From Leucosporidium creatinivorum (lineage: Eukaryota > Basidiomycota > Microbotryomycetes > Leucosporidiales > Leucosporidiaceae), in assembly GCA_001600635.1 (NCBI GenBank), contig BCKL01000008.1, positions 931,317 to 995,316 on the forward strand: a stretch of 64,000 bases of DNA, written 5' to 3'. The notes beneath the pieces are model-generated. The model had not been told where the DNA came from. It did not search any database and saw only the letters and a program-made list of their open reading frames with translations. This document shows positions 1 through 56,134 of this stretch, piece after piece. Numbering within the stretch: position 1 is the stretch's first letter; each line of letters begins with the position of its first letter. The translations under genes were made by a program, and so were the position numbers.

Positions 1-1951
1 CTCGGCGCTCGCGGAGTCGTCAAGTTCGCGCGTGTCAAGCTTTGGGGCAGACTCACCATCAGCAAAGAGTCCAGCGCCACAATCTTTGATGCAAGCGCCA
101 TTCTTNAGGTACAAGGTCTTGCTGTGGAGGGAAAGATGCGTCAACAGGCGGCGCCATCTCCTGGAGAGGACTGACGAACCAAGACGTCGCGGCAGTGCTG
201 GTGCAAGTAGCCGCATCAGAGTCGGCGCATCCAAGGCAGGAGTGGGTTTTATCTGCGAGTCGAGAGCAGGGCGGGTTGAGGTAAGAGGAGAGGAAGAGTG
301 TGAGTCAGCTTCGGCGTCGGCGACCTCTAAGCAGACCGAGGCGAGCCGAGAGAAAGAGGACGGACCATCGGTATAGGAAGCTCCCTGACAGGTCTGAGTG
401 CATCCGCCATTCTGNAGGTAGTACTTGTCCTTGCTGCAAAGAGAGGATGGTCAGCTGAAGCCCTCGGCACTGCTTCGAATCCCATTGAGCGTCATCCCAG
501 TTGAGAGCAGGTACTCACCAGGATGTAGCGGCGGTGCTGGAGCAGGTAGACGCGTTGGAGTCCTTGCAAGCGGCGCAGACATGGTTGGTCGCTGTATGGT
601 AGAGCGGGTCAGTCTCGGCGCAAACTGGCTTGCTCGAGGACTTACTGTCGGGGAAGGTGGCTCCGGCGCAAGTCTTGACACACGCTCCACCTTGGAGAAG
701 AAGAGTCTTGCTATGAATGTTGAGAGCAAGGTCAGCTTGAACTCGACCCGAGATATTACCGCCAATCGCCCAAAACGACGACGACGGAATTGCGAGCTGA
801 AGTAGGTGACGAGGAGGCCCGACTCACCAAGAGGTAGCAACAGTCGAAGAGCAAGTAGCGGCATCGGCGTCGAGGCAGTTCTTGCATGTATGAGACGAGG
901 CTGTTGATGGTTAAAACACGAAGTGGTCAGCTCGGCTATGTTATGTTAGCCCGCGCTCTTTGGGCGCTGCAGGAGACTCACCATCTCCGAATTGACCAGC
1001 GGTGCAGGGGTCAATACACTTGCCGTTGCTGAGGAACTTGGTCTTGCTATAGCGATGGCACGGCGTGTTCAGCCGACGAAGGGAGAGGGCGAATGCCGAG
1101 CCGAACTCACCATGAGGTGGCGGCGGTAGAAGTGCAGGTCGCAGCATCAGCGTCAACGGTAGAGCATGCGGTACAGGCGTTGGCGGCAGCTACAGAGGGG
1201 ACAGAAGAGCGGCGAGTGTCAGTCGGGCTCCCCTTCCTCTCGGCGCTGCTCAACGAAAGGAGAAGGAAGCTTACAGTTGGCGTAGGTGGACGAAGGGCAG
1301 GTAGAGCCGCACGCTCCATTGTACAGATACCATTTGTCCTTGCTGTGAGGCGAAGAGAGTCAGCGACGAGCTCGAAAAGTGATTCTCACGAGGCTCGGCG
1401 ATCCGACTCACCAGCTCAAGGCGGCGGTGGACGTGCAGGTGTTGCTGTGGGGATCAAGCGCGCTGCAGTCCTTGCAAGCCTTGTTCTTGTCGTCCGAGAA
1501 CTTGCCGCTAGGACACGAGCTGGCGCACTTGCCGTCTTGAAGGTAGCCCTTGTCGCAAGCCGTCGCGACTCCCTTGCTGTCGCAGGTAGCGGCTCCGCTG
1601 TCAGGGCATGAGATGCACTTGTTGTTCTTGGCGTCGAGGTAGGTTGCTCCAGTACAAGTGGGAACGCAAAGACCGTTGATGAGGCGGAAGTTGAGGGTGC
1701 TGAGGAGCAAAGAGGGTCAGCGCCGAGCACTTTCAGAGCGCATCGAGGGGCTCACCAGCCGAAGATGGTGATAGTGAGGCCGGCTGTGGGTCTCAAGTTA
1801 GCACAAAGTACGATAGTCGGATTGCGTGGCGGCTGGACTCACGCTCGCGCTTGGTGAGGTCGCTCGCAACGCCGCGGTACTCGGGGGCGACGTGAAGGGC
1901 TGCAGCAAAAGACGCTGTAGCGAGGAGGAGGGGTGCTGTCGTGAGCCGCAT
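1..1951 (-). CDS. Secreted cysteine-repeat (furin/GF-receptor-like) protein, 3' end outside window
   Basis: Starts at ATG 1951 with a signal peptide (MRLTTAPLLLATASFAAALH) and a short pro-region ending in Lys-Arg-Glu, a Kex2-like site. Exons: 1843-1951, 1756-1783, 1412-1699, 1275-1342, 1111-1189, 982-1046, 828-900, 646-710, 519-591, 366-433, 180-252, 57-121, then a GTGAGT donor at 56 leading out of the window. After exon 3 the exons alternate about 65-68 nt and 73-79 nt. Each pair encodes one repeat of the pattern K-x-x-Y-L-x-x-G-x-C-x-x-x-C, then C-x-x-C-x(6-7)-A-x-x-C. The border cysteine is split TG|C across each phase-2 intron. One donor is GTCCGT (365) and one GTTCGT (179). The family matches furin-like/growth-factor-receptor cysteine repeats. 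A secreted or wall-associated role is inferred. Two undetermined bases (106, 415) lie in exons. Paralogues are at 10723-12355, 40951-44266 and 52430-55733. Confidence 0.8.
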
Positions 1952-2979: not shown

Positions 2980-5450
2980 TTAGACCGATACTGCCGCCGA
3001 CTCCCGCTCATTCGACGCCGAGTCGTCCATCTCAACATCCTCCGCCTGCTTGCTCTTGCTCGCACTAGCCTCCGCTACCACCGCTTGGTCCCCAAGCATC
3101 GCATCATCTTCCTCCGCCTTCCTCTTTCCCTTGCCATGTCCCCCTCCGACGAGGAGGACGACCCTCCCATCCCCATCCTCGCCCTCCCCATCCTCCTTCG
3201 CTCCATCCGTCTCGTCCTCCGACCCGAAGCTCCCGCTCCTCGCTCCCGCTCCTGCATTCGAAGGTCCCGCCTCTCCCTGCATCGCCATTCCCAAGCTAAC
3301 GGGCGGCGGCGGAGCATACCTCGGGACCCGCCCATCGGCGAGGGTGGAGAGGAAGGTTGAATTAGGCGGAGTGGCTGCACTGGCGAGGGAGGCATAGATC
3401 TCGGATTCGGTGGGTGCGGAAAGATGGTTCGAGGAGGAAGTGTTGATGGAGATGGCGTGGGGAGTGTCGGGCGAGGCGGAAGTGGGCGAGGCGGAAGTGG
3501 GCGAGGCGGGAGGTTCGTCGCGCAGGGAGGAGGGGCGGGATCGACCGAGGCCAGAGAGGATGGGGAGGTGAGGTAGTGGCGTGTTCTCTGCACCGTTGAC
3601 GGCGGACGAGCGACGAGAGAGGCGCACAGAAGGTGCGCGAGAGCCCGATCGAGAGACGGGCTCGACTTCCTCCTCCACGCTTGACATGGCATCGTCCTCG
3701 ACTTGAATGTCGGGCTCTGCGTCGCCGGTAGCGGGTGCTTCGACGGCGACGGGCTCCTCTGGCTCCCATGGCTTAATCTCCACGTCGGCCCCCAAGTCGG
3801 CGTACTGTTCGAGTGGGGAGAAGGGAGGTCAGCTCTCGGCGCGGACACCGCCCGGGGGAAGCCAGACGCACTGTTCGACACAGAGGACAGCAGAAGCCAG
3901 GGTAGTTTTGCGTGATGAGCGGTCGGATGCATTTGAAGTGCTGTTGAGGAGCGAAGGATCAGCTTCGACCATTCGGCGCGAGGAGACAGAGACGACTCAC
4001 GGTCACATGCGAGCAGGGCGCAATGAAGAGAGCTTGGCAGACGGTGACGGGGTAGAGGCCTACAGTGCGACTTCTTTGATGAGCTACGACTCTCAGCTCG
4101 AGGAGCGAGACCCAACTCACAGATGCAGCAGTCGGTCACGCTCGCGACAGGTCCAGTCGCCTTCTTGGCCGGCGTCGGGACCGCCTTGCCCTTGGACTCG
4201 GTGGAAGAAGCGTCGTCGCCAGGAGTGACTCCTCCGAGGGCACGGAGCTGAGCGAGAGCAGCCGTGCTGGAGGAGGGAGGGGAGAGCGAGGTCAGCTTCC
4301 TGCTTCGAATCTGCAGACTCAGGGCCCTCGAAACTCACTTGAAAGCATTGTTACTCCTCTGCCACCCTCGGTTCAACTCGACCCTCATCTTCACGCATCT
4401 ATAAATCTCCTCCGTCCCTCCCTGATAATCGACGCCGAGCTGCAGCACATCCCCGTCCTTGAGCGGGTACGCCCTGCTCTCGGTGTTGGGTCCGCTTAAT
4501 CGGATGTGGTTAAGGAAAGTGCCGGACGACGACTTCGTATCCTTGATGAAGAACTTGCCCGCATCGTCCACCCAAATCTCGGCGTGACCGCGGGAGACGA
4601 CCTTGGACTTGAAAGCAATGCGAGTGGGGTCACTGTTGTTGTTGTGGTGTGAGCGATCGGTGAAGCGTCCAACTTTAAGGATTTGGAAGGCGGTGATGTC
4701 GCGGTCGACGGGCTCAAAGTGGAGGGAACGGGAGGATTCGAGGTGAGGGACTAGGCGGAGGCGGTGGGATTGAGAGTCGGAGGAGGTGGTGGCGCCGAGG
4801 GGAGGGGCGCCTTCGGTCGTAGGAGTGGAGACGAGGTTGCCTGTAGGGTTCGAGGTACTAGCCGTGAGAGCAGCGAACGCTGGCTGAGGAGCGTCGAGCG
4901 CCAATCCGCTGATCGTCTCGCCCGTCGCGGTCCTCGGCCTGCCCGCCGCATCTCCAGCATCAACGCCCACAGGTGCAGGCGGTTGGGACGAGCTCCTCCT
5001 CGCCCTCGAGCGCGATCCCTCCCCCGGCGAACTCGCTCCGTTCGTAGCCCTCTTGGAGAGCGTCCTCCTCAGTGCCGGGAATCCATAACCTCCCGTCCTC
5101 TCCCCTCCGCCGGGGGAAGGCGGTAGTTCCCCGCTAGGCGATCCGTTACCCGGACTACGCCCCCCTGCTCCTGCTGCAATACCGGCAGTCATGCTCGAAG
5201 GGTTGGTATGCCCGCGTGGGCGGCGCTGGATGAATCCGAGAGCGAGTCCGAAGCGGTTTGTGCTAGAGGAGGAGGGGGAGGGTAGAGGGGCGGTGGAGCC
5301 TAGTGCTGGAGAGGGGAGGGAGCTGGAGGGGAGAGCGGGCGAACGAGGTTGAGAGGAAGGAGGAGTGCCGGCGGGTGATGAGTTGGAGGATGACGCTGAT
5401 TGTCCCGGTTGGAGGTGGCGAGGGAGCATATCGAGTGGTGGCTGCGACAT
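2980..5450 (-). CDS. DMA1: DMA1-type checkpoint E3 ubiquitin ligase (FHA + RING)
   Basis: Exons 4339-5450, 4121-4266, 4001-4059, 3872-3940, 2980-3804 give 736 residues in frame. A Ser/Pro-rich N-terminus (1-250) precedes an FHA domain (about 260-370) with the phosphothreonine-binding signature SRGHAEIW and the SSSGTFLNH loop. A RING finger follows at about 416-463 (CCIC, then APCSH-x-x-H-F-K-C, then CPLC), ending in RTYADLGA as in fungal Dma1/Dma2. In yeasts this ligase binds phosphorylated spindle-pole and septin targets and delays mitotic exit and cytokinesis when the spindle is faulty. Unusual is a 270-residue acidic, Ser-rich tail encoded by the last exon, longer than in the yeast proteins, containing a duplicated SPTSASPTSAS stretch. 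The RING itself is broken over four exons. Confidence 0.92.
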
Positions 5451-10722: not shown

Positions 10723-12355
10723 CTACTTGACGTACAGCCTACAGACCTTCTGCGTGCTAGCCACCGTGTTGGCTCCCAGATTCTTGACGAAGCAGTAGGG
10801 GCCGACAAGGGCGACGTCCTCGCAAATTGCGCCTGGCCTGTGAGCGCCGAGCAATGAGCGGATGAGAGGGTTAGCGACCTCGAGCTTTGACGACGAGGAA
10901 TTGGAGGGAGAGGAAAGGGATAGGGAAGAAACGTACATCGCCCATCCTCCGTGATTGTGGATGTAGTTACAATCCACCGTAGCCACGTACGTCTGACTCC
11001 CTTCCAATGGCTGAGGTTCGGGTAGAATCAGCAAGGTCCGACCGCATTTGCAACTGTCGGGAAGGTCCATCTGGATATTGAAGAGGAGTTGACCGGCGTT
11101 GGCGACACAGAAGTCGTAGCAGCCGTGAGAGGTTGCGACCACGGGACCGGTCGTTTGAGCTTCGGGCGTGTCGCGGATGGTTGCGGTGAAGCCCGCTACT
11201 CGGGTGAGGACGGCGTCGGGGTCAACGCAGAGGTTGGCTGTTTGGTGGCAGGGTGGCTGCTTAGCTCGTGAGCCAGGCAGAGCGGGAGCTGAGGTGAGGA
11301 AGGCGTGAAGAAGGACTCGGCGACGGAGGACTCCGAGGAGAGTGCGCCGAGGTGGGGCAAAGAGACAATAGGGACGTACTGTCGGGGTGGATGAACTTCT
11401 GAATAGCGCAGCCGCACTGATTGCCGAGTCCGACGTATCCCTCAGAGCTGTAGTGACGAGGAAGCGAGAAGCCGAGCGCAGAAAAGGGTGAGCAACGAGC
11501 CACAACAGCTCTCCTGCTCGAGCTCACCAGGTAAAGATGAAATCGGCGTCGCAAGTAAGAGCGCGCTTGTCACGAAGGTTGCATGGCGAGCACGTTCGAG
11601 CTAAATTCGGAGACATCAGCACCGAGTTCGGAATTCGAACGCCGAGATTTGAGATCCGAACTTACAGCCTCGAGGCAGGAAGAAGCCGTCGCCACAGGAT
11701 CCAGTGCATTTGCCGTTCTTGAGAACCGTTCTTTGCTTGCTGTAGAGCGAAAAACGGGGTCAGCTTGCTTGAGCTCGCTTGAGCAGCTCGATCGGCGGAA
11801 AGCGAAACTGACCAGGTCAAAGGGCCCGCTGACGTACATGTAGCAGCGTTATAGTCGATCTTCTCACAGGATACGCAAGCTCTTCCTTTGGGGAAGCCGC
11901 CCGCAGGACATTCGGCGACGCAGCGAGGGACTCCTCCGCTCTCCATGTAGATGCCGTTCTGCGCGCGCAGGAGGAAGAAGGGAGACGCGCAAGCTGAAGC
12001 TCCGGCGGTGGAGCATGCGGTAGTACCCTCGCCAAAGTCGGTGCTGCAGGGTGAGCAGGGTTTCGTCTTGTCTGCGGAAGAGGAGCAGGGGCAAGGTCAG
12101 CTGCTGCTTGCGAGTGTGACAGCGGGAAAGAGTGATCACCCTTCAGATATTGGCCAGGAGGACAGACAATGCGAGGCACGAGGTCTGGGTGAAGAGAAGT
12201 CAGCGTGAGAGGGGAGAAAGCCGCCGGGAGAGCGCACCTCGCTCGCCGAGCTTTGAGCCGGGCTTCTCGATGGCGATGACGGCGGGAGGGAGCGCGAGAG
12301 CAGGGGTGAGAAGGAAGAGGAGAGCTGTGATGAAGGCGATAGGTGGAAGGAGCAT
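10723..12355 (-). CDS. Secreted cysteine-repeat protein, short divergent family member
   Basis: Exons 12238-12355, 12140-12184, 11813-12071, 11666-11739, 11528-11600, 11380-11447, 10937-11237, 10723-10837 give 350 residues. A signal peptide (MLLPPIAFITALLFLLTPAL) is followed by a cysteine-rich region with the family repeat (C-x-x-C pairs, junction cysteines split TG|C) and a C-terminal domain with a CYDFC / C-K-C-G pattern reminiscent of the C-terminal domain of the long copies. It lacks the Lys-Arg processing site seen in the others. At one module border where the long copies have an intron, the sequence reads straight through (exon 11813-12071), so an intron was lost here or gained there. 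Function is unknown. A wall or secreted role is inferred from the signal peptide. Confidence 0.82.
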
Positions 12356-40950: not shown

Positions 40951-43900
40951 TTAGTAGAGGTAGTCGCAGTTACTTCCGTCGCTGACGCGGGTGCAGGTAT
41001 CCCCGTAGAAGGCAACATCAACGCAGGAAGAGACTGTAGAGTCAGAGAGCAAAGTCAGCCGAGTTCTGCGTGCGCCGAGCATGCTTCGGCGCCAGCGCAG
41101 CGGACACAGTACGAGCGCGCAAGAGAGGGCGCAAAGTGGACGATACTACTTACTACCTTTGTTGAGTGCGGCGCAGGTTCCTTTAAATTGAGCGGCTGTA
41201 GGCCCGTAGTCGTACTCGAGGAGGGTCTGTCGAGGCTCCGTTGCATCCAAACAGAAGCAATTATTTTGGCCCGCGGTATCCTGAAAGCTAGAAGCGGTTC
41301 CTACAGGGAACTGGCTGCAGTAGGACGAGCACTGAGCATGGGAAGGACCAGGTGCACCTGAAGCGAAGTGAGTGCAACATCAGCAAGAGATAGCTCGGCG
41401 ATCAGAGCAAGGAGGCGCACCATATAGGAAGTGGCGGTTGCTGAAGTACCCTGCTGTCTGAGAATACTGCATATGCCCGAGGTACAGGGCGTAGGCCGTT
41501 CCGGGGACACACTGGTGGTTGACGGCGACGTTGGCGGCGGTGCTACAGGTAAGGGCGCCGGTTGAGTCGCAGGTGGCAGCATCTGGGAAGGCAGAGCAGC
41601 TCTTGCAAGTGTTTGTAGCAGCTGAGAAGCGGAGAAAGAGCGTTGATGGTAGAAGAGAGACGTGGTCAGGCTTCGGCGATGGCCTCGGAGGGCTATTCAG
41701 CGGTACTCACAGTCACCATAGGCTTCCGAGGGGCAGATAGAGAGGCATTGTTTGCCGTTGAGGTACCAGCCGCTCTTGCTGTAGGTGATCATCCGCCTGA
41801 GGTCAGCTTCGCGCTCGAGCTCAGATCTCGGTCGCCCTTTCGATGAGGCTCGGTGCTTGTCAAAGTTGCGTGGGAGGGTGCGAAAGAGAAAGAGCGTACC
41901 AAGTAAGAGCACCCGAGTCGTCGCAAGTGGCAGCGTTGCTCGAGCACGCCTGGCAGACGCGCGAAGCTGGTAAAGAGAGGAAGGGTCAGTGCAACTCTGC
42001 ACTCCCTCGCCTCGGCCAGCATTCACAAGTACTCACAGTCGGAGACAAAACCATCTCCACAGCTATCTACGCAAGCGGCCGACTTCAGCAGCTTGGTGTT
42101 GCTGTAGGGAGGAAAGAAGCTGGTCAGTTTGGCTCGGCGATGGGGGTCGACCTCAATGAGGTGAGCGAATGAACTAGGAAGTAGCCTGAGACTTACCAGG
42201 AGAGAGCACCAGTAGAGCTACAAGTAGCGGCATCCGAGTCCTTACAAGACAGGCAAGAGTGCGAAGCATCTGCGCCGAGAAGAGCAGCGGCCAGAAGGGG
42301 GGTCAGCTTCGTCGAGGTCTACAGCATCGGGCATCACAGCGCACCATCAGGGAAGGTAGCACCAGAGCATGTAGATCCGCAGGCGCCGCTTTGGAGGTAG
42401 CCTCTCTTGCTGCGAAGGGGGAACCAGGTGTCAGCGCGGATGTCGGCGAGAGCTCGGCGCTTGTCCCCATCTCAACAAAGAGCCCAGAGGAGGGCAGAAA
42501 CTCACCAAGACGTAGCACCGGAGGCGGTGCAAGTGGCGGCCGACTTGTCTGCGCAAGGAAGGCAGCTCTTGGTGGTGTCTGAGACGAGCGAGGAGGGTCA
42601 GCTCGGCGCGCCGCTTTGTCGCCGGCGAAGGGCGCTCACCATCCGGGTAGAGACCGTCGGAGCACGACGCAGTGCACAGTCCAGATTGGATGTAGAGTCC
42701 GGTCTTGCTATGGACGCGAAAGAAAGCCATCAGCAGCCTTCCCTCTGAGGGCCGCTCTTCCGCCTAAGGAGCTGCCGAGAGAGCGGGGCTCACCAGCTCA
42801 AGGACTCGGTGGAAGAGCATGTAACAGCCGAAGTATCCGTGCAGGGGACACAATTGTGCGATGCATCTGTGTTGTGAGTTGATGGGAGGGGCGACGGGGA
42901 AAAACAGCGAGCAAGGAGCTGATCAGCGAAGCTCGTCCGATGTCGTCGTTCATCTCCAAGCGCTGAGAGGCTACATACCGTCGGCCCTGCTTCCATCAGC
43001 GCAGGTATCCGCGCAAGCTCCCGTTTGGAGGTACTTCTTTGAGCTGTAGATCGGCAGAAGATGGCGTTCGTAAGGCTCGGCGAGCGATTGCCGGAAAGGA
43101 CCGCCGAGACGAACCAAGAAGTGGCGGCCGTGGCGGTGCAAGATGCGGCATCTGGGTCGGTGCATCCGACACATGACCGAGTAGGAGCTAGAGGAGCGAC
43201 GACGGCGTAAGGAGATACAGAACGAGAGGGCGTGTCAGCTTCGGCGATCTTGACAGCTGGTCAACGCGGAAGTAAAAAGACATACTGTCGGCAAAGGTAG
43301 GTCCCCGACAGGATCGCGTGCAGACTCCGCTCTGGAGGTAGTAAGTGTCCTTGCTGTTGAGCAAAGAGAGGCGTCAGCCGAAGCTTTCGGCGCAGGCATA
43401 AATCGGCGCTTGGCGCCGGCCGCTGGTAGACTGAACCAAATGGCAAGCAAAGTCTCACCACGACGTCGACTTATCAGCTGTGCAGGTCCTGGCAGACCGG
43501 TCGGAGCAGGCGCGGCATGCATTGGCTGAGGGGGAGTTGGATCAGCTTTGGCTTCGCCGAAGGAAGAAGGGGCGGACGAACCGGCTTTGTTGTAGAACGT
43601 GGCCTCGGGACAACTTCTGATGCACTTTCCTTGCCAAAGCTTGGTGGCCAGTGAGCTAGTGTGTATATGAAAGGTCAGCGAGCCTCCAGCGCCGAGAGTG
43701 GAGAAGCAGCGCACCAGGCCGTTGCTCCCGATGCTGTACATTTAGTGGCGGAGATATCGATCTTTTTGCAGCTGGTACATCTTCTCGCTCCTTGCACTGT
43801 GCTGGAAAAGCCAGGTGCGGGGCAAGTGGTCACGCAACGCCCGAGAGCGCTTTCGGAGTAGACCCCCGCCGAGTTGACCCTTGCGAGGTAAGAAGGCGAG

Positions 43901-44691
43901 TTGCTGTTGGGTGAAGAATCTTAGTGATTGATTGAGGCTTGATCTGTATTCCTCTGAGGCCCACCAAGCGAGAGCTCCCGCGGTGTTTGAGCATTTGCTC
44001 GCCCCTTTGCCGAACTTGCTCGAGCAGGTGGAGCAGGTCGAGCCGGTTTGGATTGAGCCAAGAGGACACCCATGAGCCACAGCGGGGTCGGGGAGGGCTG
44101 TGATACCGAAAGGCTCAGCGTACAGCAAGAGAGCTGCATCTGGAAGCGACTCACCTTCGCGCTTGAGCAAGCCCGACTCGAGGCTCGGTCGGTACTCGGG
44201 GGCGATGCGCATGGCTGCAGCGAGCGATGCTGTAGCTAAGAAGAGGGAGACGTTGGTGAGCCTCATTGCTGGAGGTGCAGAGCCGTGCGTTGAAGAAGTG
44301 GCTGGAGAGAGAGAGCAGAGAAGCGAAAGCAGGCTGAGCCACCAGAAAATGAAAAAGGCGACTCGGAGTGCCCCGCTGACAGGTAACCGCGTTCCCGCCC
44401 TTCGAATGTTCAATGCCGCCAAGAGGCGGGATTGACAGGCGGGAGAAACGGCAGAGGAACAGGTTGCTCGCTTCGGCCTGGATGCTTCGGAGCCTTCTCC
44501 AAACCTTGCAAGCTTCATGCGAGCTCAGCCTGAGGCGTCATGCCGCTCAAAGAGGGCTTCTTAGTGCAAAGAGCTTACCCTCGTGCAGAAAACAGAACGA
44601 ATGCAGGCTGAGGAGCTGCCCGCCGTCGTGGTGAGACTTCGGTAGCCGAGCGAGGGCGATCGAGGCCTCTCCCGTAACGCTGGGATTGGCA
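40813..44691 (-). repeat. Segmental duplication, copy 1
   Basis: About 3.9 kb sharing gene, exon sizes and both flanks with 52281-56134. The right flank 44644-44691 matches 56087-56134 over 48 nt with one mismatch, and the left flank matches over 18 nt. Both copies keep the same orientation. Confidence 0.85.
40951..44266 (-). CDS. Secreted cysteine-repeat protein, long copy 1
   Basis: Nineteen exons: 44155-44266, 43965-44097, 43715-43903, 43582-43655, 43459-43525, 43286-43353, 43115-43187, 42979-43043, 42794-42866, 42640-42707, 42506-42578, 42345-42409, 42197-42269, 42037-42101, 41900-41966, 41711-41778, 41421-41621, 41154-41357, 40951-41033 (606 residues). A signal peptide (MRLTNVSLFLATASLAAA) precedes a pro-region ending LLKR-E (Kex2-like). 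About eight two-exon modules follow, of the form K-x-x-Y-L-x-x-G-x-C-x-x-x-C-x-D-G / C-x-x-C-x-D-x-x-A-x-x-C-x-x-x-x-A-x-S-C. A C-terminal domain has CSSYCSQFPVGTAS, CFCLDA, GTCAALNKG and a final SCVDVAFYGDTC-x-RVSDGSNCDYLY. That domain recalls WSC-type carbohydrate-binding folds, which is inference. Surface or wall location is inferred. All border cysteines are split TG|C. Confidence 0.88.
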
Positions 44692-45899: not shown

Positions 45900-46392
45900 G
45901 CTGAGGTCGAGAGGGGAGCGAGGAGAGAGGGGGGAGGGAGAGAGCCGTGAGTCGGGGCAAGCTGAGTTTGGCTCGCCCTCTCTTAGCAGCGGATGCAGCA
46001 GGGAGCCTTAAACCTAGCAGGCCGCTTCGCATCGTACCTCTCGCTCCAGCGCCAGCTCGCGAAGGGACAACTTATTCCAGCTCGAGAACTCGACAGCGAA
46101 AGATCCGACTCTTCGGCGCTCGCTCGGCGACCTACCAAGCCTTCAGCGCATCAAGCTATGCAGCACATTCCATAGCCACAGCTGTGTAGTATCACCCGTC
46201 AGCAAACTTGGACACAGCCTCCAAGCCCTGCGACTCACCTCTCGGGAGGATCAGCGAACGACGGCTAGCTCTTGACCTTCTCACGCTCAGCAACCCCAAC
46301 CACCCGGTTGAAAGTGAGAACCGTCTGCTCATCCGGCTCGAGTGCGCCTCTCTGGACGCATTTGTTCCCAGGCTGCGTCAAGCCTTTCGATG
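45900..46392. other. Intergenic, 493 bp
   Basis: Promoter side of the small-protein gene and 3' flank of the first F-box-like locus. No supported gene. Confidence 0.5.
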
Positions 46393-47651
46393 CTAGTCTC
46401 GGCTTCGTGGCCTGGAGATCCAGGAGAGGATAGTGGCGGTAGGCCGGATCGAGGAGCTCGGTCGAAACGATGATAAGGGAGTGCCCTCGAGTCCGAGCTG
46501 GCGAAGGTTAGGCAAGCATCGAGGGAAGACGCCGAGCAGGGTGTGGCGGGGCCGGTTGCTCGCGTTGGCCGACGTCTAGGGGAGAGCACAATGCGCATCA
46601 GCAGGACGCGCAAGATGCATGTAGCCCTCGACGTACTGAAGCCCAGCAAACTGAAAGGTGCAGCTCTTTGACCGAGTCGAACGAGAGCTGAGCTTGAGCC
46701 AGCGACGACGGAGGTAGCACAGCCAGGTATAGCTTCTTGGGAACGCTGAAGGCTTAGGCGGCAAGGAGGTCAATCGAGCTATTGTCGAAGGTGTGCATGT
46801 TGATGTGGAGCTCCCGCAAAGCGAACGACGTCTGCGAGGCGGCTCAGCGTAAGTTGTGGCAGCTATAGAATGGGCTAGAAGCACTTACAAGGTGAGGTAG
46901 GCTCCGAAGCCCGCGTGTGATCTCCGTGTAGACGTCACCGGGTGCTCGCAGCGTTAGCTTCGTGAGAAGGGGAAGGACCGAGATCTCGGGGATAGCCTCG
47001 CCCAGGCTGAGCGTGCGAGTATTCCAGCAGTGTCGGAGCGGGAAGGAAGCGCTGCAGGAGTGCACGTCGAGCGAGCGAAGACTCGACATCATGACCGAGA
47101 ACGAGAAGGTCGGATCCTGGATGCCGTCTCCGCTCTGAATGAAGAGCGTCTGGACGTGGAGCTGTGCAAGGACATCGGTGACGTCGACGCCTAGGGGTCT
47201 CGGTCTACTTCCGACCGAGGCGAGAATGCACAAGACTTCGAGGTTGTCGAGCTGGGGAAGTAGGGCGAAGGGGAAGCGCTGCTTTGGCTCTCGGAGATGC
47301 CACTCGACGTATCGAACGAGCTTCCGAGCTTCCGCATCCTGCTGTAAAGCTTTCGTAGCATCCTTCGGCTCGATGTTGTAGCGTCCGAAGGTGTGGTTGG
47401 CCCAGGCGAGAGGACGAAGCACCTCAGCGACTCGCTTCGAGGTGCACCGGAGCGCGCGCAGGTCTTTCTGATCCACCTCGTTGGGCAGCATGACGAGCTC
47501 TCCTTTCCTGGAGAGGACCAGTAGCGGTAGGTCGGCGAGCGACGTCGGTTGAGCGTCCGAGGTGCTGTTGGATGGAGGGGCAGGTTAGCAAGCGCGTCGA
47601 GAGCGCTACAAGGGTAGAGCAGGGAGCAGAGGCGTACCTTTGAGTCATCAT
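46393..47651 (-). pseudogene. F-box-like protein gene with an internal stop
   Basis: Exons 47638-47651 (14 nt), 46889-47564, 46637-46831, 46393-46575. The start is MMTQSTSDAQPTSLADLPLL. The F-box-like part has the family segment RALRCTSKRVAEVLRPLAWANHTF, shared with the two downstream paralogues, followed by Leu-rich repeats (LDNLEVLCIL, SLRSLDVHSC, LLTKLTLRA). In exon 3 an in-frame TAA (46754-46756) ends the protein at 255 residues. Beyond it the frame stays open with family-like Leu-rich sequence (KKLYLAVLPPS, SVKELHLSVCWAS), crosses a consistent 61-nt intron and ends at TAG 46393. The paralogues have 410 and 436 residues, so this copy is truncated, either as a young pseudogene or as a short functional form. 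Members would recruit SCF ubiquitin-ligase targets, by inference. Confidence 0.65.
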
Positions 47652-48237
47652 AGTATCTCCTAGTACAGCTTGACCTCCTCCAGCAGCAGCGACGAGTCGA
47701 GAAAGCGAGAGACGAGTGTGCGGAGAGAGAAACACGCGGGGCTGAGCGTTGTCAAGGTCGGCTGTAAAGGCATAGATCAGCCAGGCGAGCAGACTCGAGA
47801 GCAGCAACAGATTTCATCGAGCTGCCTGTAGCTCGCTGCATGCCCTTTGCACCTCTCGAGGCCAGCCTTCCCATCGCCGAGCTCGCTCACTCGCTGCTGC
47901 TCCGCCCGAACGCGTGACGAGTTCAATTGGGGCTTCTTAGTGCTAAGCAAAGGACTCGTAGTAGGTCCTTGTAGTAGCCGAGAAGGAAAAGTCGACCTGC
48001 GGATCGAGGCGGATCAGCTTCAGCGAAGCGAGAAGGGCCCGAAACGAGCGCCGAGCGACACTGCTCGACGTAGGGAGTTGTAGGGGAATCACACGACGCT
48101 GTGGGAGGTCTAGTGGATACCAAGAAAACAAAAGGAGATGGACGCGAGTGAAAAGGCCAGCCTCTGATGGTCAGGAAGGTCAGCTGGGCTCGTTTGACGA
48201 GATTCGCCTGAAGAGAAGCGCCGAGGCAGCTCACCGG
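47652..48237. other. Intergenic, 0.6 kb
   Basis: Upstream side of the truncated F-box-like gene. No gene seen apart from the transporter remnant that begins further right. Confidence 0.4.
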
Positions 48238-48420
48238 TGATTCCCAGGATAAGGCGGCACACCACCAAGCCAGGGTAGCTCTGAACGACTCCCATCAACG
48301 TCTGGTCAAGGCCCAATATAGCGTGAGGAAGGTGATCCCTATGTAGTGGCAGCGAGTCCCGTCAGCCCCGCGCCGAGGTTGCCTCGCTGAGGCCTTCCTC
48401 ACTTGCATCAGGTGACCTGC
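48238..48420 (-). pseudogene. Remnant of an MFS transporter (Dal5/allantoate-permease type)
   Basis: Two adjacent minus-strand segments in different frames read GITFLTLYWALT and TLMGVVQSYPGLVVCRLILG. Together they match the pattern of helices 3-4 in anion:cation symporter-family permeases, with an intron donor GGTGAGC just after. No continuation is found on either side, and the sequence upstream (48424-48666) contains seven undetermined bases. This is a short decayed piece with no coding capacity. Family assignment is from pattern memory only. Confidence 0.35.
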
Positions 48421-48699
48421 GCGNGTTCACACCANCGCATACGATATGACTTCCGCTGACTCCTTCCCACGNAGCGCGGCGAGCAGCATTGACGATTCGA
48501 TTCTCCNCTCANCGCGCCTGCTCCGAGTCGGCCGAAAAGCAGAGCAGGTCGTCTTGCAGCACGTGTACCTCGGCGAAGCGTCTAGTACCATTTCGCAAGA
48601 AAANCGTAGTCCCCTCCGTTGAGCTCTGCAACAGGTGAGCCCAGGCGTCAGCGAGCTGCGAAGGCNTGGTCGACCGAGAAGGCACTCACCCGGCGCCCA

Positions 48700-50133
48700 T
48701 CAGTTCCAGATGTACGGCTCCCGGTGGGAGTTGAAGGTGACGGCCGTCGTAGTCTTTTCCTGCCCTTTCGAGTAGATGAGGTACAGCCACTTGATCTTGG
48801 TCTCCTCGGCGATCTGATCCAGCAAATCGAGCATCGTGCAATAGCCTTGCGCTACAGAGTGAGCCCCAGTGAGGAAGTTCGTCGCCTGCACACTGGTAGA
48901 CCAATCTCCTTCGATGAACAGCGTGCACAGGTTCGGGAACGACTTGAGGAAGCCGGTAACCACGAGGAAGGGATCCTCCGCCTCCTTGAACTGCAGAGAA
49001 AAGGCGATCAGCTTCTCTACGGATGGCGTGTGATGACTTGACTCACGAGATCCTTTGAAAAACGCCATCCGGACAGTCTCAGCCTCTCCACAGAAGGCAT
49101 TTCGACGCCATTTAGAGCGAGCAGCTCGGACTTGGAGAGGTGGAGCCGACGCGCCGATACTCATCGTGAGCGAGCGTAGGGTGCTGGAAGGAGCAAACGC
49201 GCGTAGAGCTTCCACAAAAGACGGAGTATCGATGGAGAGGAGCGGGAGGGTAAGATGGCGAAGAGCGCAAGCGGTGTCCTGCGAGGCCGAACAGTCTAGA
49301 GTCAGCGAGCGTCACCGATCCTCTCCTGAGGTCTGCCCACACTCTCGAGCATCGCGGTTCTGAGCGTCTCCACGTCGGTAGACTCGAGCTTGTGAACGAT
49401 GAGCGCTTGCACAGTGCTGAGCACCGAAGCGTACGGCCCGAGCGAGTTGGTGATGAGGAGTCGAAGGGGTGGGTCGCCTGAGATGGGCTGAGTCCAGTCG
49501 CGGAGCTCCAGACCCGTCAAGGAGGGTAGCTGCTGGCCGAGGGAGAAGCCGTCGTCTTCGAACCCCGAAGCGCGGGCAAGGGAGAGGGCTCGGAGATGAG
49601 GAATGAGATGAAGCGTCTCGGTGACGCCGAACGGAATGAGGGGCGGTGGCGACCTGCTACGACGGTGGTAGTGCGACGAAGGGGTTTCCTCGGGCACTAC
49701 TCGTACACTCTTGAGGTTGGTCAGGCGAGGGAGGGTCGAAGCTGGAAGCATTGACGGCAGCTTCCACTCGACGTGTCGTACGTAGCTCTGCAGCTGTACA
49801 TCGCGCAGCAGCTGTCTGGTCGACTCTTTGGGACCTCCAGTCTCGGGCGCGAAGCAGTGGCTTGCCCAGGCGAGGGGGCGAAGGATCGAAGCGAGGCGCT
49901 TGGCGGTACAGAGGAGAGCGCGAATCTCTTCTTGGTCGGCGCCTTTCCTGAGCATGAGGTGTTGTCCAATGATGAAGATGATCTCGTCGGGTAGTTGGAG
50001 GAGCGGGAAGGGCTCGTCGACGGGCTGAGGCGAAGAGGGTTCGAGGGGCGACGACGCGCTGAAGGAGCAAAAACAGCATCAGCGAGAGGTACAGCGAGGT
50101 CGGGCATGACTGTACTCACTCTTCTGAGTCCAT
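48700..50133 (-). CDS. F-box/leucine-rich-repeat-like protein
   Basis: Exons 50120-50133 (14 nt), 49341-50058 and 48700-49278 encode 436 residues. The start is MDSEDASSPLEPSSP. The F-box is LLQLPDEIIFIIGQHLM, followed by IRALLCTAKRLASILRPLAWASHCF. The remainder carries irregular Leu-rich repeats (LPRLTNLKSVRV, LIPHLRALSLARA, LPSLTGLELRD, LKSFPNLCTLFIEG) and ends SHREPYIWN. A GTGAGT/GCAG pair at 49052-48993 looks like an intron, but removing it breaks the frame. The read-through aligns with the paralogue at 50534-51956, so it is kept as exon. Probable SCF substrate receptor; targets unknown. Confidence 0.75.
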
Positions 50134-50533
50134 CGTATCTCGTTCAAGCAGCTCAGAGTCCTCCATCGAGTCGAGAGCAGAACTAACGAGTGAGCGGGAG
50201 GAGAGAGAAAGACGCGAGGAGGGCCGAAGCCAGATGAAGTGGAGTAGCAGAATCGGGAGAGCGTCTGGTATAGTTGTGGTGGACTGTGAGTGGCTCAGAA
50301 GAGCTCCCCTGCTCCGTCAGACCTGCTACAGCCTCAGCGAGCTCACCTTCACCCATCGCCGAAGCCGCTTCTCTTGCCGCTCCCTTCACGGCTTTCGCTC
50401 ACCCTTGTAGGTCTTATGGGAGGCGGGATAGAGATACCTGTTGCATGAGCGCTGAGCTACCACAAGGACTGCAACACCACTCCCTCAGCGCCGCAACCTC
50501 GGCGATGCTATCCCCTCCCTCCTCCCGAACCGC
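50134..50533. other. Intergenic between F-box paralogues
   Basis: 400 bp: promoter of the upstream-lying paralogue and 3' flank of the next. Nothing else seen. Confidence 0.5.
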
Positions 50534-51956
50534 TCAGGTAGTCCAGAACAGCTCCTCAGTCCATCCCTCGCCCTCTTCATCTAGTCTGATTTCCAGCGTA
50601 CAGCCCCACGCGGACTCAGAACCCCACGCGGATTGATGGTGAATCAGAACCACCTCTTCCNGCTTCGACTCCGCCGAGTCCAGCTCTNTCAAGAACGTCT
50701 CCAGGTCGGGCACCATCTTGATGGCGCCCTCCGCCGTTGAATCGATCCAGTAGCCGTGTATGTGAAGATTGAGGAGGTTGGGGAATGAAGACAAGAGCTG
50801 GAGGAGGAAGGGGTAGGGGCTCGGACGAGGATTCACGCTGCTGGACGAGGGAGGCTGCACGGAGAGGCTGGTCAGTGGCGCTCTTCGCAAAGAGAAGCCA
50901 GCAAGAACTCACTTGAAGCCAATGGCGGTAACCANACAGCTCAAGTCTCTGGAGCGAGGGGAGACGACAGTCGGCGAAGGTATTGCTATCGCCGAGCTTG
51001 AACGAGATCGAATTGAGCTTCAGCGTGTGGAGCTCTGTGGTAGCGCTGAACGCCTTGAGCAATGCAGGTGCATCTTCGAAGTGAAGCTCGAGCTGGTGCA
51101 AAGGGTAGGTGACCGTCGAACCCTGCGCCGAGGAAGGAGTCAGCGAGTTCGAGGGCGGGTCGTAAAGGCGAAGGGTAGCCTCACCGAGCTTTCCAACTCT
51201 TGTTGAATCTGTTCAGCTAGTTCCTCGAGACCCTTCGGACAGCGTNTGAACGTGAGGCCTTGNAGAGTAGGCAGGACCTCGAAAATCTCCTCCGCCGAAT
51301 CGACCGTAATCGTCTCTAGCAACGCCGCTCCCCCATGTAGAAACGTGGGGAGCTCGCAGAATTGGTAGTCGAGATGCCTCAGCGCTGGTGTGTCGTGTTC
51401 GAACGAGAAGCTGTTGCTCTCGATGCCGTTGTAGTTGAAGAGGCCGAGACTTTTGAGATTGGGCAGGAGCGAGAGGGTATCGGTGATGGATATAGAAACG
51501 TAGGTTTGGTACCTATCACTCCCGACCGACGTGATGGACAGGTGGGTGAGGTTGGTGAGGGAGGGGAGGTTGAGAATGCCAAAGCCGAGCAGACCGTCGG
51601 GGTAGTAGAAGTCGGCGGACTGTACGAGGCTACGCAGCTCAGGATCTCGGTGAAGCACTCTGAGAGAAGGGTAGATGTGGTCCCCGTCGGCGTTGAAATG
51701 GTAATGCTTCCACGCTAGAGGCCGAAGGAGCACGGCGAGGTGTCGGCAGACGAGGCGAAGAGGTCGGAATGGTTTGTGGGTGCTGATACGATCAGTGATG
51801 TGGTAAAGTAGCTCATCGGGCAATCGCAAGAGCAGTGAGTTGTGCTGAACCGACCGTGAGGAGGGCGTCCTCCTAGAGCAGCGCAACGAAAGACGTCAGT
51901 CAGCGGCTCATCTACTGAGGTGCAGGAGGCTAGCGAGCTCACATCAAGTCTTGCAT
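50534..51956 (-). CDS. F-box/leucine-rich-repeat-like protein
   Basis: Exons 51943-51956 (14 nt), 51185-51872, 50913-51122, 50534-50854 (410 residues). The start is MQDLMRTPSSRSVQH. The clearest F-box of the cluster is LLLRLPDELLYHITDRI, followed by LRLVCRHLAVLLRPLAWKHYHF. Leu-rich repeats follow (LPSLTNLTHLSITSV, LLPNLKSLGLF, LHQLELHFED, LHTLKLNSI, LSSFPNLLNLHIHGYW). Near the C-terminus a seven-residue direct repeat (SAWGSES / SAWG) occurs. Five undetermined bases lie inside coding sequence (50661, 50688, 50935, 51246, 51263). The 14-nt first exon and its phase are shared with both paralogues, showing tandem duplication. Confidence 0.78.
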
Positions 51957-52429
51957 ACCGGTGCAACCCGTACAGAGCAGTTCCTGAGCGAATCGAGTCG
52001 AGATACAGCAAGCAAGCAGCGAGTGAGAAGCAAGAGGGAAAGAGGCGAGCTGGCTTCCGAGACGGGCTTGATTAGAGAGCAGAGCCCCTGACCAGTCGAG
52101 CCTTGAATCGGTACAACTAGTGGAGCACGAATCTGTGTGCTACACTTGGCCAGAGTCCCTTCCGAACGACTTTGGAGCTTTCAGCCCTCGAACTTCGCCG
52201 AACCCCTGCTCCCGCTTTCGCCGAGTCGCCGAGCTCGCTGACCTCTCTCGCTCTTCAAATGTGGTCCTACAACAGCTTGGTGGCTTGTTGCAGATCACCA
52301 ACACATGTGCATAATGTCAATCCCCTGATTCACCCTCAAATGGAACACTAAGAAGCGACAAGAAAGGAGAGGAATCGAGTTGAGGCAGAGCCGAGGCGAG
52401 CTCGGGAAGGGAGAGGAGAGGTCGGCGGC
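51957..52429. other. Intergenic, 473 bp
   Basis: Promoter side of the F-box gene and 3' flank of the second long cysteine-repeat gene. The left edge of duplication copy 2 (52281) lies here. Confidence 0.5.
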
Positions 52430-55400
52430 TTAGTAGAGGTAGTCGCAGTTGCTTCCGTCGCTGACGCGGATGCAAGAGTCTCCGGCGAAGAGCACGTCGA
52501 CACAGGAAGCGACTGTAAGAGCAAGAGCGAAGTCAGCCGAGCCCCGCGCCGAGCATGCGCGCGAGAGGTCAGAATCAAAAGAGATGCTACTTACTGCCTT
52601 TGTCAAGCTCAGCACAGGTCCCTTTCAGATGAGTAACGGTCTTGACACTATCCTCATCAAAGATGCTCTCCATGAGGTATTGTTCGGGCGCTGCTGCCGA
52701 TAAGCACAGGCAGTAATGCCCGCCACTGAAAGGCTGCTCCCAGCCAGACGCGGTTCCTGCAGGGAAGTTGCTGATGCACCATGACTCGCACTCAGCATGG
52801 CCCTTTCCGGGGATATCTGCGACCGAAGGGGAGTAGACTCTTAGCAGGGAAGGAGTCCGAGGCTGGCAGATCAGGGAACTAATGCACACCGAACGCGTTG
52901 CCATCACCGTCAGCATACCCTGCCTGTGAAGAATATTGAATCCATCCCGGATACAGCGAGTACGGGACCGGCGTGAAGCACTGGCCTTTGGAAACGACGT
53001 TGCCGGGGGTGATGCAGGAGAGGGCGCCGGTGGTGTCGCAGGTAGCTGCACCGGAGAAGACCGTGCAGCTTTCGCATGTGTTGGTGGTAGCTGAGGAGTG
53101 TTGAAAGAAGGACGACGAGAGGGGGGAGACGGGGTTAGTCCTTCGGCGATGGCTTTGGAGGGTTGGTTAGCGGCTACTTACGGTTTCCATAGGCTCCCAC
53201 GGGGCAGAGAGAGAGGCACTGCTTGCTGTTCAGGTATGAGCCATCCATGCTGTGGTTGAGAACCCATCTGAAGTTAGTTCCTTGCTCGAGGTCAGATCTC
53301 GGTGGGCCCTCCCAATGACGCTCGGCGCTTGACCTGGGTCCAGGAAGAAAGTGAGAAGAGATGAGGACATACCAGGTAAGGGCTCCAGTTGCGTCGCAGG
53401 TAGCTGCGTTGCCCGTGCACGCCTGGCAGACGCGCAAAGCTGGTGGAGAGAGGAAGGGCCAGTTCCACTCTGCACTCCCTCGCCTCGGACAGCAATGACG
53501 AGTACTCACAGTCGGAGACGAAACCACCTCCACAGCTATCTACGCAAGCGCCCGACTTAAGCAGCTTGGTGTTGCTGTAGGGAGGAGAGAAGCTGGTCAG
53601 TTCGGCTCGGCGATGGGGGTCGACCTCAATGAGGTGAGCGAATGAACTAGGAAGTAGCCTGAGACTTACCAGGAAAGAGCACCGGTAGAGCTGCAAGTAG
53701 CTGCGTCCGAGTCCTCGCAAGGCCGGCAAGAGCGCGAAGCGTCTGCGCCGAGAAGAGCGACAGCGAGGAGGGTCAGCTTCGGCGAGGTCTACAGCATTGG
53801 GCCTGCCGACGCACCATCAGGGAAGCTAGCGCCAGAGCACAGTAATCCACACGCGCCGTTCTGGAGATAGCCGCTCTTGCTGTGAAAGGGAAGATTGGTA
53901 TAAGCGTGGGCTCGGCGAAAGCTCGGCGCTTGCCTCTTCTCGACAAAACAGCTGGAAGGGGGAGAAAGGCTCACCAAGACGTAGCACCGGATGCAGTACA
54001 AGTTGCGGCCGACTTGTCTGCACAAGCGAGGCAACTCTTGGTGTTGTCTGAGAGAGAGAGGGAGGTCAACTCGGCGGGTCGTCTGATCGACGGAAGAAAG
54101 CTCACCATCGGGGTAGAGACCGTCGGAGCATGAGCTAGTGCACAAGCCCGATTGGAGGTAGAGTCCGGTCTTGCTAAGAACGCGAAAGAAAGACGTCAGC
54201 TGCTCTGAGCGCCGCTCTTCCGCCGAAATAGCTGCCGAGGGGGCTGGACTCACCAGCTCAAGGACTCGGTGGAAGAGCACGTCACGGCCGAAGTATCCGT
54301 GCAGGGGATGCAAGTGTGCGATCCATCTGTTTTGTGAGTTGATGGGAGGGGAGATGGAGAAGGATCAGCGAGCAAGGAGCTGATCAGCGAGGCTCGTCGT
54401 GGTTCAACTCCAAGCGCTTAAAGGCTACATACCGTCGGCCCTGCTTCCATCAGCGCAGCTATCCACGCACGCTCCCGCTTGGAGGTATTTCTTCGTGCTG
54501 TAGATTGGGGCAAGAGGCGTTAGCGAACGCTCTGCGAATTAGAAGAGCGACCGAGACAAACCAAGAAGTGGCAGCCGTGGATGAGCAAGAAGCTGCATCG
54601 GGATCAGTGCAGTCGGCGCATGTCATAGTATTGTCTGCAGAGGCAGCGTTGCAGAGAAGAAGATCGGATACGGAGAGAGCGGGGAAAGAGAGAATCGGTC
54701 AGCTTGGACCTCGGCGATCAAGTGAGGCGAGGGTCGAGGCGAGGGAAGCTCACCGTTGGCAAACGTAGCTCCCCGACAGTTCTGAGTACAGGTACCGCTC
54801 TGGAGGTAGTACGTGTCCTTGCTGTGGGGCGAAGGTAGGCGTCAGTCGAAGCTTTCGGCGATAATCAAGCTCAGCGCCCGGCGCTGATTGGCTGCGTCAA
54901 ATCGCAGGCGAGGACTCACCATGATGTCGACTTGACGGCAGTGCAAGTCTTTGCAGAGGTATCGGAGCAGGTGCGGCATGCGTTGGCTGGGAAGGGACAG
55001 ATCAGCTTCAGCTCGGCGAACAAGAAAAGAGAAGAGAGAGGCCAAACGAACCGGCTTTGTCGTAGAACGTCCCCTCGGGGCAGGTTCCGATACACTTTCC
55101 TTGCCAAAGCTTAGTGCGGGGTGAGCTGTTCAGTGCAGAACAGGTCAGCGAGCGTCTTACGTCGAGAAAGGACAAAGGACTTACCAAGCCGTCGCTCCCG
55201 TCGCCGTGCATTTAGTCGCCTGCTTGTCAACCTTCTTGCAGCTCATGCACTTCCTGACACCATCGATGGTGCTGGGATAGCCAGCCGAAGGGCAAATGGT
55301 GACGCAGCGACCGAGAGCGCTCTCCGAGTAAATTCCGGCCGAGTTGACTTTGGCGAGGTAGAAACGAGAGGTGCTGGTGGGAGGAAGGTTGTCAGTGAAT

Positions 55401-56134
55401 GTAGATCCTAATCTGAAATGCTCCGAGAGCTCACCAAGCAAGAGCTCCCGCCTTGGTCGAGCATTCTCGCGTTCCGCTCCCGAACTTGCTCGAGCAGGTC
55501 GAGCAGGTCGAGCCGGTGAGGACGGAGCCAGGAGGACATCCGCGAGCGACAGCGGGGTCGGGAAGGGCTGTAACATCAAAGGACTCAGCGTACAGCGAGA
55601 GCGGCGCATCCGAAAGCGACTCACCTTCGCGCTTGAGCAAGTCCGAGAGGCTGGGCCGGAGTTCGGGGGCGATGCGCATAGCTGCAGCGAGCGATGCTGC
55701 AGCCAAGAGGAGAGAGGCATTGGTGATCCTCATTGCTGGAGGTGCAGAGCCGTGTGTTGAAGAATTGGCTGGAGAGAGAGCGGAGAAGCGGAGAGGCGAA
55801 AGCAGACTCGAAAGCGAAGAGGCGGGTTCCCCGCTCCTTTGTATGTAGCCCCATCCCATGCTCCAAGCGATAAATGCAGCCAAGAAGCGGGATCGCCAGA
55901 TGAAGCAAGCAGTAAAGGCTCCGACCTGATTCCTTCGGAGATGCCTCCTCCCGCTCCGTAAAGTCGCTGGATTGAGCCTACACTGGTACAAGAGCTGGCA
56001 TCGAGTGTAACCCGTCGACCTCGTGCAGCAAGGAAGAGCGAAAGCAGGACAAGAGCAGCTCCCGACCTTCCGGATGAGACCTCGGCAGCCGAGCGAGGAC
56101 GATCGAGGCCTCTCCCGTAACGCTGGGATTGGCA
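52281..56134 (-). repeat. Segmental duplication, copy 2
   Basis: Counterpart of 40813-44691 with the same orientation, the same 19-exon gene and matching flanks. Introns are also largely alignable (for example around 53575-53670 against 42102-42197). Confidence 0.85.
52430..55733 (-). CDS. Secreted cysteine-repeat protein, long copy 2
   Basis: Nineteen exons: 55625-55733, 55435-55567, 55185-55373, 55052-55125, 54920-54986, 54754-54821, 54562-54634, 54433-54497, 54254-54326, 54106-54173, 53975-54047, 53815-53879, 53670-53742, 53510-53574, 53373-53439, 53182-53249, 52890-53090, 52595-52816, 52430-52512 (611 residues). All exons except 1 and 18 have the same length as in copy 1. A signal peptide (MRITNASLLLAAASLAAA), a pro-region ending LLKR-E and the same module series follow. 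The C-terminal domain contains CESWCISNFPAGTASGWE, CLCLSAAAPE, GTCAELDKG and the conserved end RVSDGSNCDYLY. Divergence is concentrated in that domain, while the repeat modules stay close. Function unknown; secreted or wall-associated by inference. Confidence 0.88.

What the first reader, a model, noticed from the sequence alone, without database searches (positions are those of the whole stretch)
40951..44266. Exon-modular cysteine repeats with the border cysteine split TG|C by every module intron
In four genes of the window, nearly every repeat is encoded by one ~65/68-nt exon plus one ~73-nt exon. Intron phases alternate strictly (phase 2 after TG, phase 1 inside the module). The last base of the conserved cysteine codon sits in the next exon, so each module pair is frame-neutral and any loss, gain or skipping keeps both frame and cysteine count. 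This is an unusually regular gene architecture for a fungus. It suggests growth by exon duplication and possible production of isoforms of different length by exon skipping.
Basis: seen in the sequence. Interest (0 to 1): 0.8.

Follow-up and report, generated by a model that had tools for sequence, protein, structure and literature searches.

The report
Cysteine-repeat genes built from exon pairs
A fungus-like genome carries a family of probably secreted, cysteine-rich repeat proteins in which a repeat is typically spelled by a fixed pair of small exons, and some genes have visibly grown by copying whole blocks of exon pairs together with their introns.

Summary
Genes A (44266-40951), B (55733-52430) and C (1951 to the window start) carry two-exon modules: the border cysteine is split TG|C by a phase-2 intron, and a phase-1 intron lies inside. 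A divergent fourth gene (12355-10723) has one such module. Nine more loci were modelled elsewhere in the genome. Over 12 loci, all 145 internal exons of 55-92 nt have phases (2,1) or (1,2); 86 of 91 phase-2 introns split a cysteine codon; 65 of 66 clean modules have six cysteines, three per exon. Genes hold 2 to 17 clean modules.

Growth by exon duplication is supported: gene F aligns to itself over 2.1 kb, introns included, at an offset of eight exons (E 5e-168), gene E at two exons. A and B are under purifying selection (dN 0.18, dS 0.68).

Exon-skipping isoforms are not supported: those 145 exons are all out of frame singly, so only pairs are frame-neutral, and no transcript data were available.

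The repeats match Pfam Furin-like_2 and, weakly, R-spondins. Exon-array genes are known from Tetrahymena and animals; my searches found no fungal case in print.

The parts
40951..44266 (-). Gene A: 19 exons, 606 aa, signal-peptide-like N-terminus, KR at residue 35, six clean two-exon modules
   Evidence: several splice sites set by hand to agree with gene B
43582..43655 (-). Gene A module 1, exon I (74 nt, phases 2 to 1)
   Evidence: other parses
43459..43525 (-). Gene A module 1, exon II (67 nt, phases 1 to 2, ends TG)
   Evidence: other parses
42197..42269 (-). Gene A module 5, exon II (73 nt), ends TG before a phase-2 intron
42102..42196 (-). Phase-2 border intron, 93 of 95 aligned positions identical in gene B
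52430..55733 (-). Gene B: paralogue of A with 19 exons in the same order; 17 of 19 exon lengths equal, the other two differ by 3 and 18 nt
   Evidence: one module exon (53439-53373) and the 3' exons set by hand
1..1951 (-). Gene C, 5' part: 12 exons to the window start, four clean modules; could not be followed further
1412..1699 (-). Gene C 288-nt exon holding two modules without introns
10723..12355 (-). Fourth, divergent family gene (rough model of 8 exons)
11528..11739 (-). The one two-exon module of the fourth gene (74 + 73 nt); 3' border TG|C in the model, 5' border TG|C by eye only (intron 11812-11740)

Best explanation
These genes encode secreted proteins made of furin-like six-cysteine repeats. 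A typical repeat is one exon pair: exon I (62-74 nt, three cysteines, the first split TG|C by the preceding phase-2 intron) and exon II (67-91 nt, three cysteines), separated by a phase-1 intron. The two introns flanking a pair share phase 2, so a pair or a block of pairs can be inserted or deleted between pairs with frame and cysteine parity kept. The arrays grew by tandem duplication of such blocks, introns included, probably by unequal recombination. Later duplication and recombination between genes gave relatives with different module strings. Shown here by computation: architecture, selection on the protein (A against B), and block duplication with introns (E and F). Inferred: unequal recombination as the mechanism, secretion, Kex2-type cleavage after KR, disulfide pairing, and a role as a disulfide-rich extracellular rod (coat, adhesion or ligand binding).
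For: Phases (2,1) or (1,2) in 145 of 145 internal exons of 55-92 nt, with alternating runs up to 36 introns. 65 of 66 clean modules with 3+3 cysteines. F self-alignment 1075-3208 against 2331-4472, exon 8-intron 21 onto exon 16-intron 29, 63.6% identity, E 5e-168; E self-alignment of 577 columns at a two-exon offset, 67.4%, E 4e-59. Of 102 intron pairs alike between genes, 63 are phase 1-1, 37 phase 2-2, 0 phase 1-2, 2 involve phase-0 calls. A/B dN 0.183, dS 0.677 over 605 codons. Module strings share blocks, for example c-b-d-e in A, B, D and F. Pfam Furin-like_2 at 2.8e-12, 47.2 bits against a cut-off of 28 (gene A).
Against: No transcript or protein data. Several splice sites were set by hand. 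Part of gene I, the 3' ends of F and D, and one border of the fourth gene are unresolved. The 50 internal exons of other lengths have mixed phases, 17 of them (1,1) and 10 (2,2). Only one within-gene intron pair passes blastn 1e-4 on introns alone, so most older duplications are inferred from exons. Module-matched intron z-scores in F (1.2 to 8.0) overlap the mismatched ones (0.6 to 5.8). The self-alignments used permissive gapped scoring, and weaker alignments at other module offsets also run through introns. F module 1 has tyrosine at the border position. Which process duplicated the blocks was not tested.
Confidence: 0.8

Rival explanations
1. The exon pairs serve alternative splicing: whole modules are skipped to make proteins of different length from one gene.
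For: Exon pairs are frame-neutral and nearly all carry six cysteines. Symmetrical exons are argued to be prone to skipping in animals (PMC6335736, passages seen).
Against: Each single exon of 55-92 nt is out of frame (145 of 145), so two exons must go at once. Introns are short, median 75 nt. In Ustilago maydis 12 of 193 alternative splicing events are exon skipping and 114 are retention (PMC2219887, passages), and that paper states that fungi are thought to use intron definition. The same passages note numerous exon-skipping cases in Cryptococcus neoformans, so skipping is not excluded in fungi. The pattern is fully expected from duplication alone.
Confidence: 0.08
2. The repeats arose first without introns, and introns were later inserted again and again at the same favoured site in each repeat.
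For: Distant paralogues on C17 have long exons, and the first modules of C, E, F, K and M lack the inner intron. Split cysteines use TGC more than whole ones (83 of 86 against 432 of 557, counts, p 4e-6), so the site has a sequence preference.
Against: Introns are copied with exons in E and F. Intron similarity between genes respects phase. In the rough model of the distant C17 gene 13 of 16 phase-2 introns also split a cysteine, so the border intron seems old in the family.
Confidence: 0.07
3. The gene models are wrong and the regularity comes from forcing splice sites onto repetitive sequence.
For: The first models gave several different parses in parts of A, B and I, and I set some sites by hand.
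Against: The module part is largely stable when cysteine codons score zero and penalties change. A and B keep 17 of 19 exon lengths, the other two differing by multiples of three, while only 5 of 18 introns keep their length, and substitutions sit mostly at third codon positions (0.35 against 0.17).
Confidence: 0.03

Closest known systems
Furin-like repeats (Pfam PF15913 Furin-like_2; R-spondin furin domains)
   Same: Gene A passes the Pfam cut-off, 47.2 bits against 28. A query of five F modules aligns with R-spondin-2 over residues 73-174, about two modules, E 1.4e-4.
   Different: Up to 17 clean modules in tandem, a C-terminal region of gene A without a Pfam match, and in gene A no other domain over its cut-off.
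Tetrahymena 90-bp-exon LRR gene arrays (PMC6564038, part of the abstract and passages seen)
   Same: Tandem arrays of fixed-length exons, over 96% phase-2 introns, a junction amino acid shared by neighbouring exons, growth by exon duplication, variable exon number between genes.
   Different: There one exon is one unit of exactly 90 bp with symmetric phases. Here a unit is two unequal exons (phases 2-1-2), the junction residue is a cysteine, and the repeat is not leucine-rich.
Exon shuffling of symmetrical modules in animals (Patthy, PMC6335736, abstract and passages seen)
   Same: Modules flanked by introns of one phase, frame-neutral duplication.
   Different: Described there as a minor process outside animals; here the flanking phase is 2 and the module is itself split by a phase-1 intron.
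SP7-like effectors of arbuscular mycorrhizal fungi (PMC11333574, passages and section 6 seen)
   Same: A fungal multigene family of secreted proteins with 6-11 imperfect repeats.
   Different: Hydrophilic repeats, not cysteine repeats. The text seen describes one conserved intron before the first repeat, and no exon unit per repeat.

Membership tests
Furin-like_2 (PF15913) | Profile match above the curated cut-off | tested here: met
   47.2 bits (gene A) and 34.5 bits (eight F modules) against 28. A distant C17 paralogue has no match up to E 0.1.
Furin-like_2 (PF15913) | Fold of disulfide-linked hairpins (recalled) | not tested
R-spondin | Furin repeats followed by a thrombospondin type 1 domain (recalled) | tested here: not met
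   Only Furin-like_2 passes its cut-off in gene A.
Exon-array genes grown by tandem exon duplication (Tetrahymena LRR kind) | Repeat exons of fixed length with strongly biased intron phase | tested here: met
   145 of 145 internal exons of 55-92 nt are (2,1) or (1,2); lengths mostly 65/68 and 73.
Exon-array genes grown by tandem exon duplication (Tetrahymena LRR kind) | Duplication includes intron sequence | tested here: met
   Self-alignments of E and F through introns; the other genes were not tested this way.
Exon-array genes grown by tandem exon duplication (Tetrahymena LRR kind) | Leucine-rich repeats in single 90-bp symmetric exons | tested here: not met
   Six-cysteine repeats in two non-symmetric exons.
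Genes with regulated exon-skipping isoforms | Transcripts lacking one or more modules | not testable with these tools
   No RNA data held.

The most novel reading that the evidence does not exclude
The two-exon cysteine module works as a genomic cassette for fast variation in a surface or secreted protein family: genes in clusters on several contigs exchange and multiply blocks of modules by recombination in their introns, so that array length and order differ between strains, much as tandem repeats vary in other surface proteins, but with introns as safe breakpoints.
Probability: 0.3. Interest if true: 0.75.

Novelty: new variant of a known kind. Interest (0 to 1): 0.58.

Why it matters
Growth of proteins by duplication of frame-neutral exon units is usually told as an animal story, with ciliates as an exception. 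Here it can be read directly in a compact, intron-dense genome, with recent and old steps in one family: a one-module duplication in E, a four-module block repeated about two and a half times in F, and genes of 2 to 17 clean modules. It allows a test of whether short introns act as recombination breakpoints in cysteine-repeat genes, and gene predictors may well split or truncate such genes.

Tried and rejected
First splice models gave spurious exons; I dropped them where paralogue comparison and stricter scores disagreed. The motif CGCCGA near branch points suggested mobile introns; it is frequent across the whole window on both strands and not clearly rarer in long ORFs, so I did not read it as a sign of introner spread. 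Pfam Furin-like_2 as a genome search found four places, one over the cut-off, since the search runs exon by exon; protein queries were used instead. One scan of the prokaryote genome collection found no relative (45 pattern matches, none confirmed). Papers: searches showed no description of exon-modular cysteine-repeat genes in fungi; most hits were seen as listings only. Zambounis 2012 on brown algae is not held and is known here only as a reference title.

A mistake mended: the scripts assumed TG before each module, so one search shows six cysteines in 66 of 66 modules. The recount with the real bases gives 65 of 66; F module 1 begins with tyrosine.

Rows dropped before counts: the duplicate copies A' and J'; the distant paralogues (window 12355-10723, C8 698 kb, 706 kb and 902 kb, C17) were left out of the 12-locus counts, as were internal exons outside 55-92 nt (50, mixed phases). 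Gene C lacks its 3' end and gene D its 5' end, and D's 3' end is mismodelled. In gene I four short exons are unresolved, so its two counted modules are a lower bound.

Full report
What was checked. The window is G000:C8:931317-995316 of a 27.7-Mb genome in 63 contigs. Gene A (44266-40951, minus) was modelled by dynamic programming over donor, acceptor, branch-point and codon scores. The first scorings gave unstable parses. With stricter donors (G at position 5) and codon scores from long ORFs of the window, 12 of the 16 clean modules of A, B and C came out whole. To avoid rewarding the claimed pattern, I set the scores of both cysteine codons to zero and repeated the models; 14 of 16 came out whole, and changed penalties gave much the same arrays. 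The remaining sites in A and B were set by hand to canonical sites shared by both genes.

Anatomy. In A, 8 of 8 phase-2 introns split a cysteine codon TG|C or TG|T; in B 8 of 8; in C 6 of 6. A and B have 19 exons each. Their exon lengths agree in 17 of 19, and the other two differ by 3 and 18 nt, while intron lengths agree in 5 of 18. Over 605 aligned codons they are 72% identical in protein, differ at 0.17, 0.17 and 0.35 of codon positions 1, 2 and 3, and have dN 0.183 and dS 0.677. So A and B behave like protein-coding genes under purifying selection. Its two-exon module and 3' TG|C border come out of an anchored model; its 5' border is TG|C by my reading, but the model took a different donor there.

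The wider family. Protein searches of the same genome (lower bounds, as the tool says) gave clusters on contigs C8, C9, C17 and C38. Twelve loci of the close subfamily were modelled: A, B, C, D, E, F on C8, G, H, I, J on C38, K and M on C9; two identical copies (A', J') were left out. Of internal exons 55-92 nt long, 74 have phases (2,1) and 71 have (1,2), of 145 in all; 50 internal exons of other lengths have mixed phases. One search shows 146 because it still held a cut last exon of C. Of 91 phase-2 introns, 83 read TG|C and 3 TG|T. The five others are F intron 3 (TA|C, a well-placed border with tyrosine instead of cysteine), two in the unresolved 3' end of F, one in the unresolved part of I and one in the mismodelled 3' end of D. 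For comparison, 2 of 104 well-scoring introns in rough models of other window genes split a cysteine in phase 2. Sixty-six clean modules were extracted; 65 have six cysteines, three in exon I and three in exon II, and F module 1 has five. The commonest cysteine spacings are 10 or 11, 4, 13, 3, 8 (46 of 66 modules). Clean modules per gene run from 2 (G, H, I, J) to 17 (F); C and D are incomplete.

How the arrays grew. Gene F aligns with itself from 1075-3208 to 2331-4472, offset 1,256 bp, 63.6% identity, E 5e-168, running from exon 8 to intron 21 onto exon 16 to intron 29, that is exactly eight exons or four modules, through introns as well as exons. Gene E aligns with itself over 577 columns at an offset of 318 bp, 67.4%, from intron 10-exon 14 onto intron 12-exon 16, one module. 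The scoring was permissive, and weaker alignments (57-67%) at other module offsets also cross introns. With introns alone, blastn at 1e-4 finds one within-gene pair (E introns 12 and 14) and 102 between-gene pairs; of the 102, 63 are phase 1 with phase 1, 37 phase 2 with phase 2, none phase 1 with phase 2, two involve phase-0 calls. A reversed-sequence control gave 3 hits. In F, module-matched introns score z 1.2 to 8.0 and mismatched ones 0.6 to 5.8, so single introns are weak evidence and the long block alignment carries the case. Clustering modules gives strings such as A and B a-b-c-b-d-e, D k-h-b-c-b-d-e, E g-g-h-b-i-i-b-j-d-e, F g-g-h-b-i-k-h-b-i-k-h-b-c-b-d-e-j, K and M g-g-h-b, G, H, J f-g; the nearest neighbour of 63 of 66 modules lies in another gene. 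F thus looks like an E-like 5' part, a repeated h-b-i-k block and an A/B/D-like 3' part. Some introns shared by E and F (5, 6 and 8) and by D and E are identical, so exchange or duplication between genes is recent.

Duplication of two-exon units is supported. The statement that any loss, gain or skipping keeps the frame is too broad: every single exon of 55-92 nt is out of frame (145 of 145), so the frame-neutral unit is the pair. The isoform idea has no evidence here. It would need double skipping in genes with short introns (median 75 nt); the paper on U. maydis whose passages I read reports 12 exon-skipping and 114 intron-retention events of 193 and says fungi are thought to splice by intron definition, though it also mentions numerous skipping cases in C. 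neoformans (PMC2219887). Eighteen of 207 introns are multiples of three without an in-frame stop, so most retained introns would break the protein.

What the protein is. Gene A matches Pfam Furin-like_2 at E 2.8e-12, over the cut-off. A query of five F modules matches R-spondin-2 chains of the PDB, best E 1.4e-4, over about two modules. Ten of eleven readable N-termini carry KR at residues 31-35 after a hydrophobic leader, F being the exception in my model; I infer secretion and Kex2-type processing, with no signal-peptide predictor run. C-termini are not hydrophobic by eye, so a GPI anchor is unlikely. The C-terminal region of A has no Pfam match. Function remains inference: a disulfide-rich extracellular rod.

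Older history. Distant paralogues on C17 and C8 have longer exons in places, yet in the rough model of the large C17 gene 13 of 16 phase-2 introns split a cysteine. The border intron therefore seems old, and the strict pairing is best kept in the close subfamily. The first modules of C, E, F, K and M lack the inner phase-1 intron (141-144- or 288-nt exons), by loss or because they never had it.

Relation to known systems. The nearest architecture is that of Tetrahymena LRR genes with arrays of 90-bp exons and over 96% phase-2 introns, explained there by exon shuffling through ectopic recombination and possibly retrotransposition (PMC6564038, part of the abstract and passages). Patthy describes shuffling of symmetrical modules as a minor process outside animals (PMC6335736, abstract and passages). 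SP7-like effectors are fungal repeat proteins but the text seen mentions one conserved intron before the repeats (PMC11333574, section 6). Searches showed no fungal example of the present kind; the library lacks most subscription papers. I therefore call it a new variant of a known kind.

Noticed in passing
window 30224-52050 and C8:1012471-1034295: A 21.8-kb inverted copy, 99.6% identical, runs to the contig end in a poly-G run and holds an identical copy of gene A; differences lie only from 47089 on and crowd at 51.4-52.05 kb. Recent duplication or assembly artefact.
   Followed up: partly
C38:213087-217048 and C9:864717-868678: 3,962 bases identical in reverse orientation near two contig ends, each with a copy of gene J.
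   Followed up: partly
introns of the family; whole window: CGCCGA occurs 91 times in family introns against 14 in exons (5.26 and 0.74 per kb). Both orientations are about four times over base-composition expectation across the window, and long ORFs are not clearly poorer in it than the rest.
   Followed up: partly
window 42196-42102 against gene B: One intron is 98% identical between A and B while most others are 73-90%, suggesting local gene conversion.
   Followed up: no
split cysteine codons of the family: Split cysteines read TGC in 83 of 86 cases against 432 of 557 whole ones, p 4e-6; perhaps an exon-start preference after AG.
   Followed up: no
C8:842432 onward (gene F), intron 3: The one well-placed module border where the split codon reads TA|C (tyrosine) instead of cysteine, leaving that module with five cysteines.
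   Followed up: no
C17:378138-384979: A large distant paralogue (rough model 1,247 aa) with long exons; 13 of 16 phase-2 introns split a cysteine.
   Followed up: partly
window 46000-52000, minus strand: Between genes A and B several ORF stretches look like related F-box or LRR-type proteins by eye.
   Followed up: no
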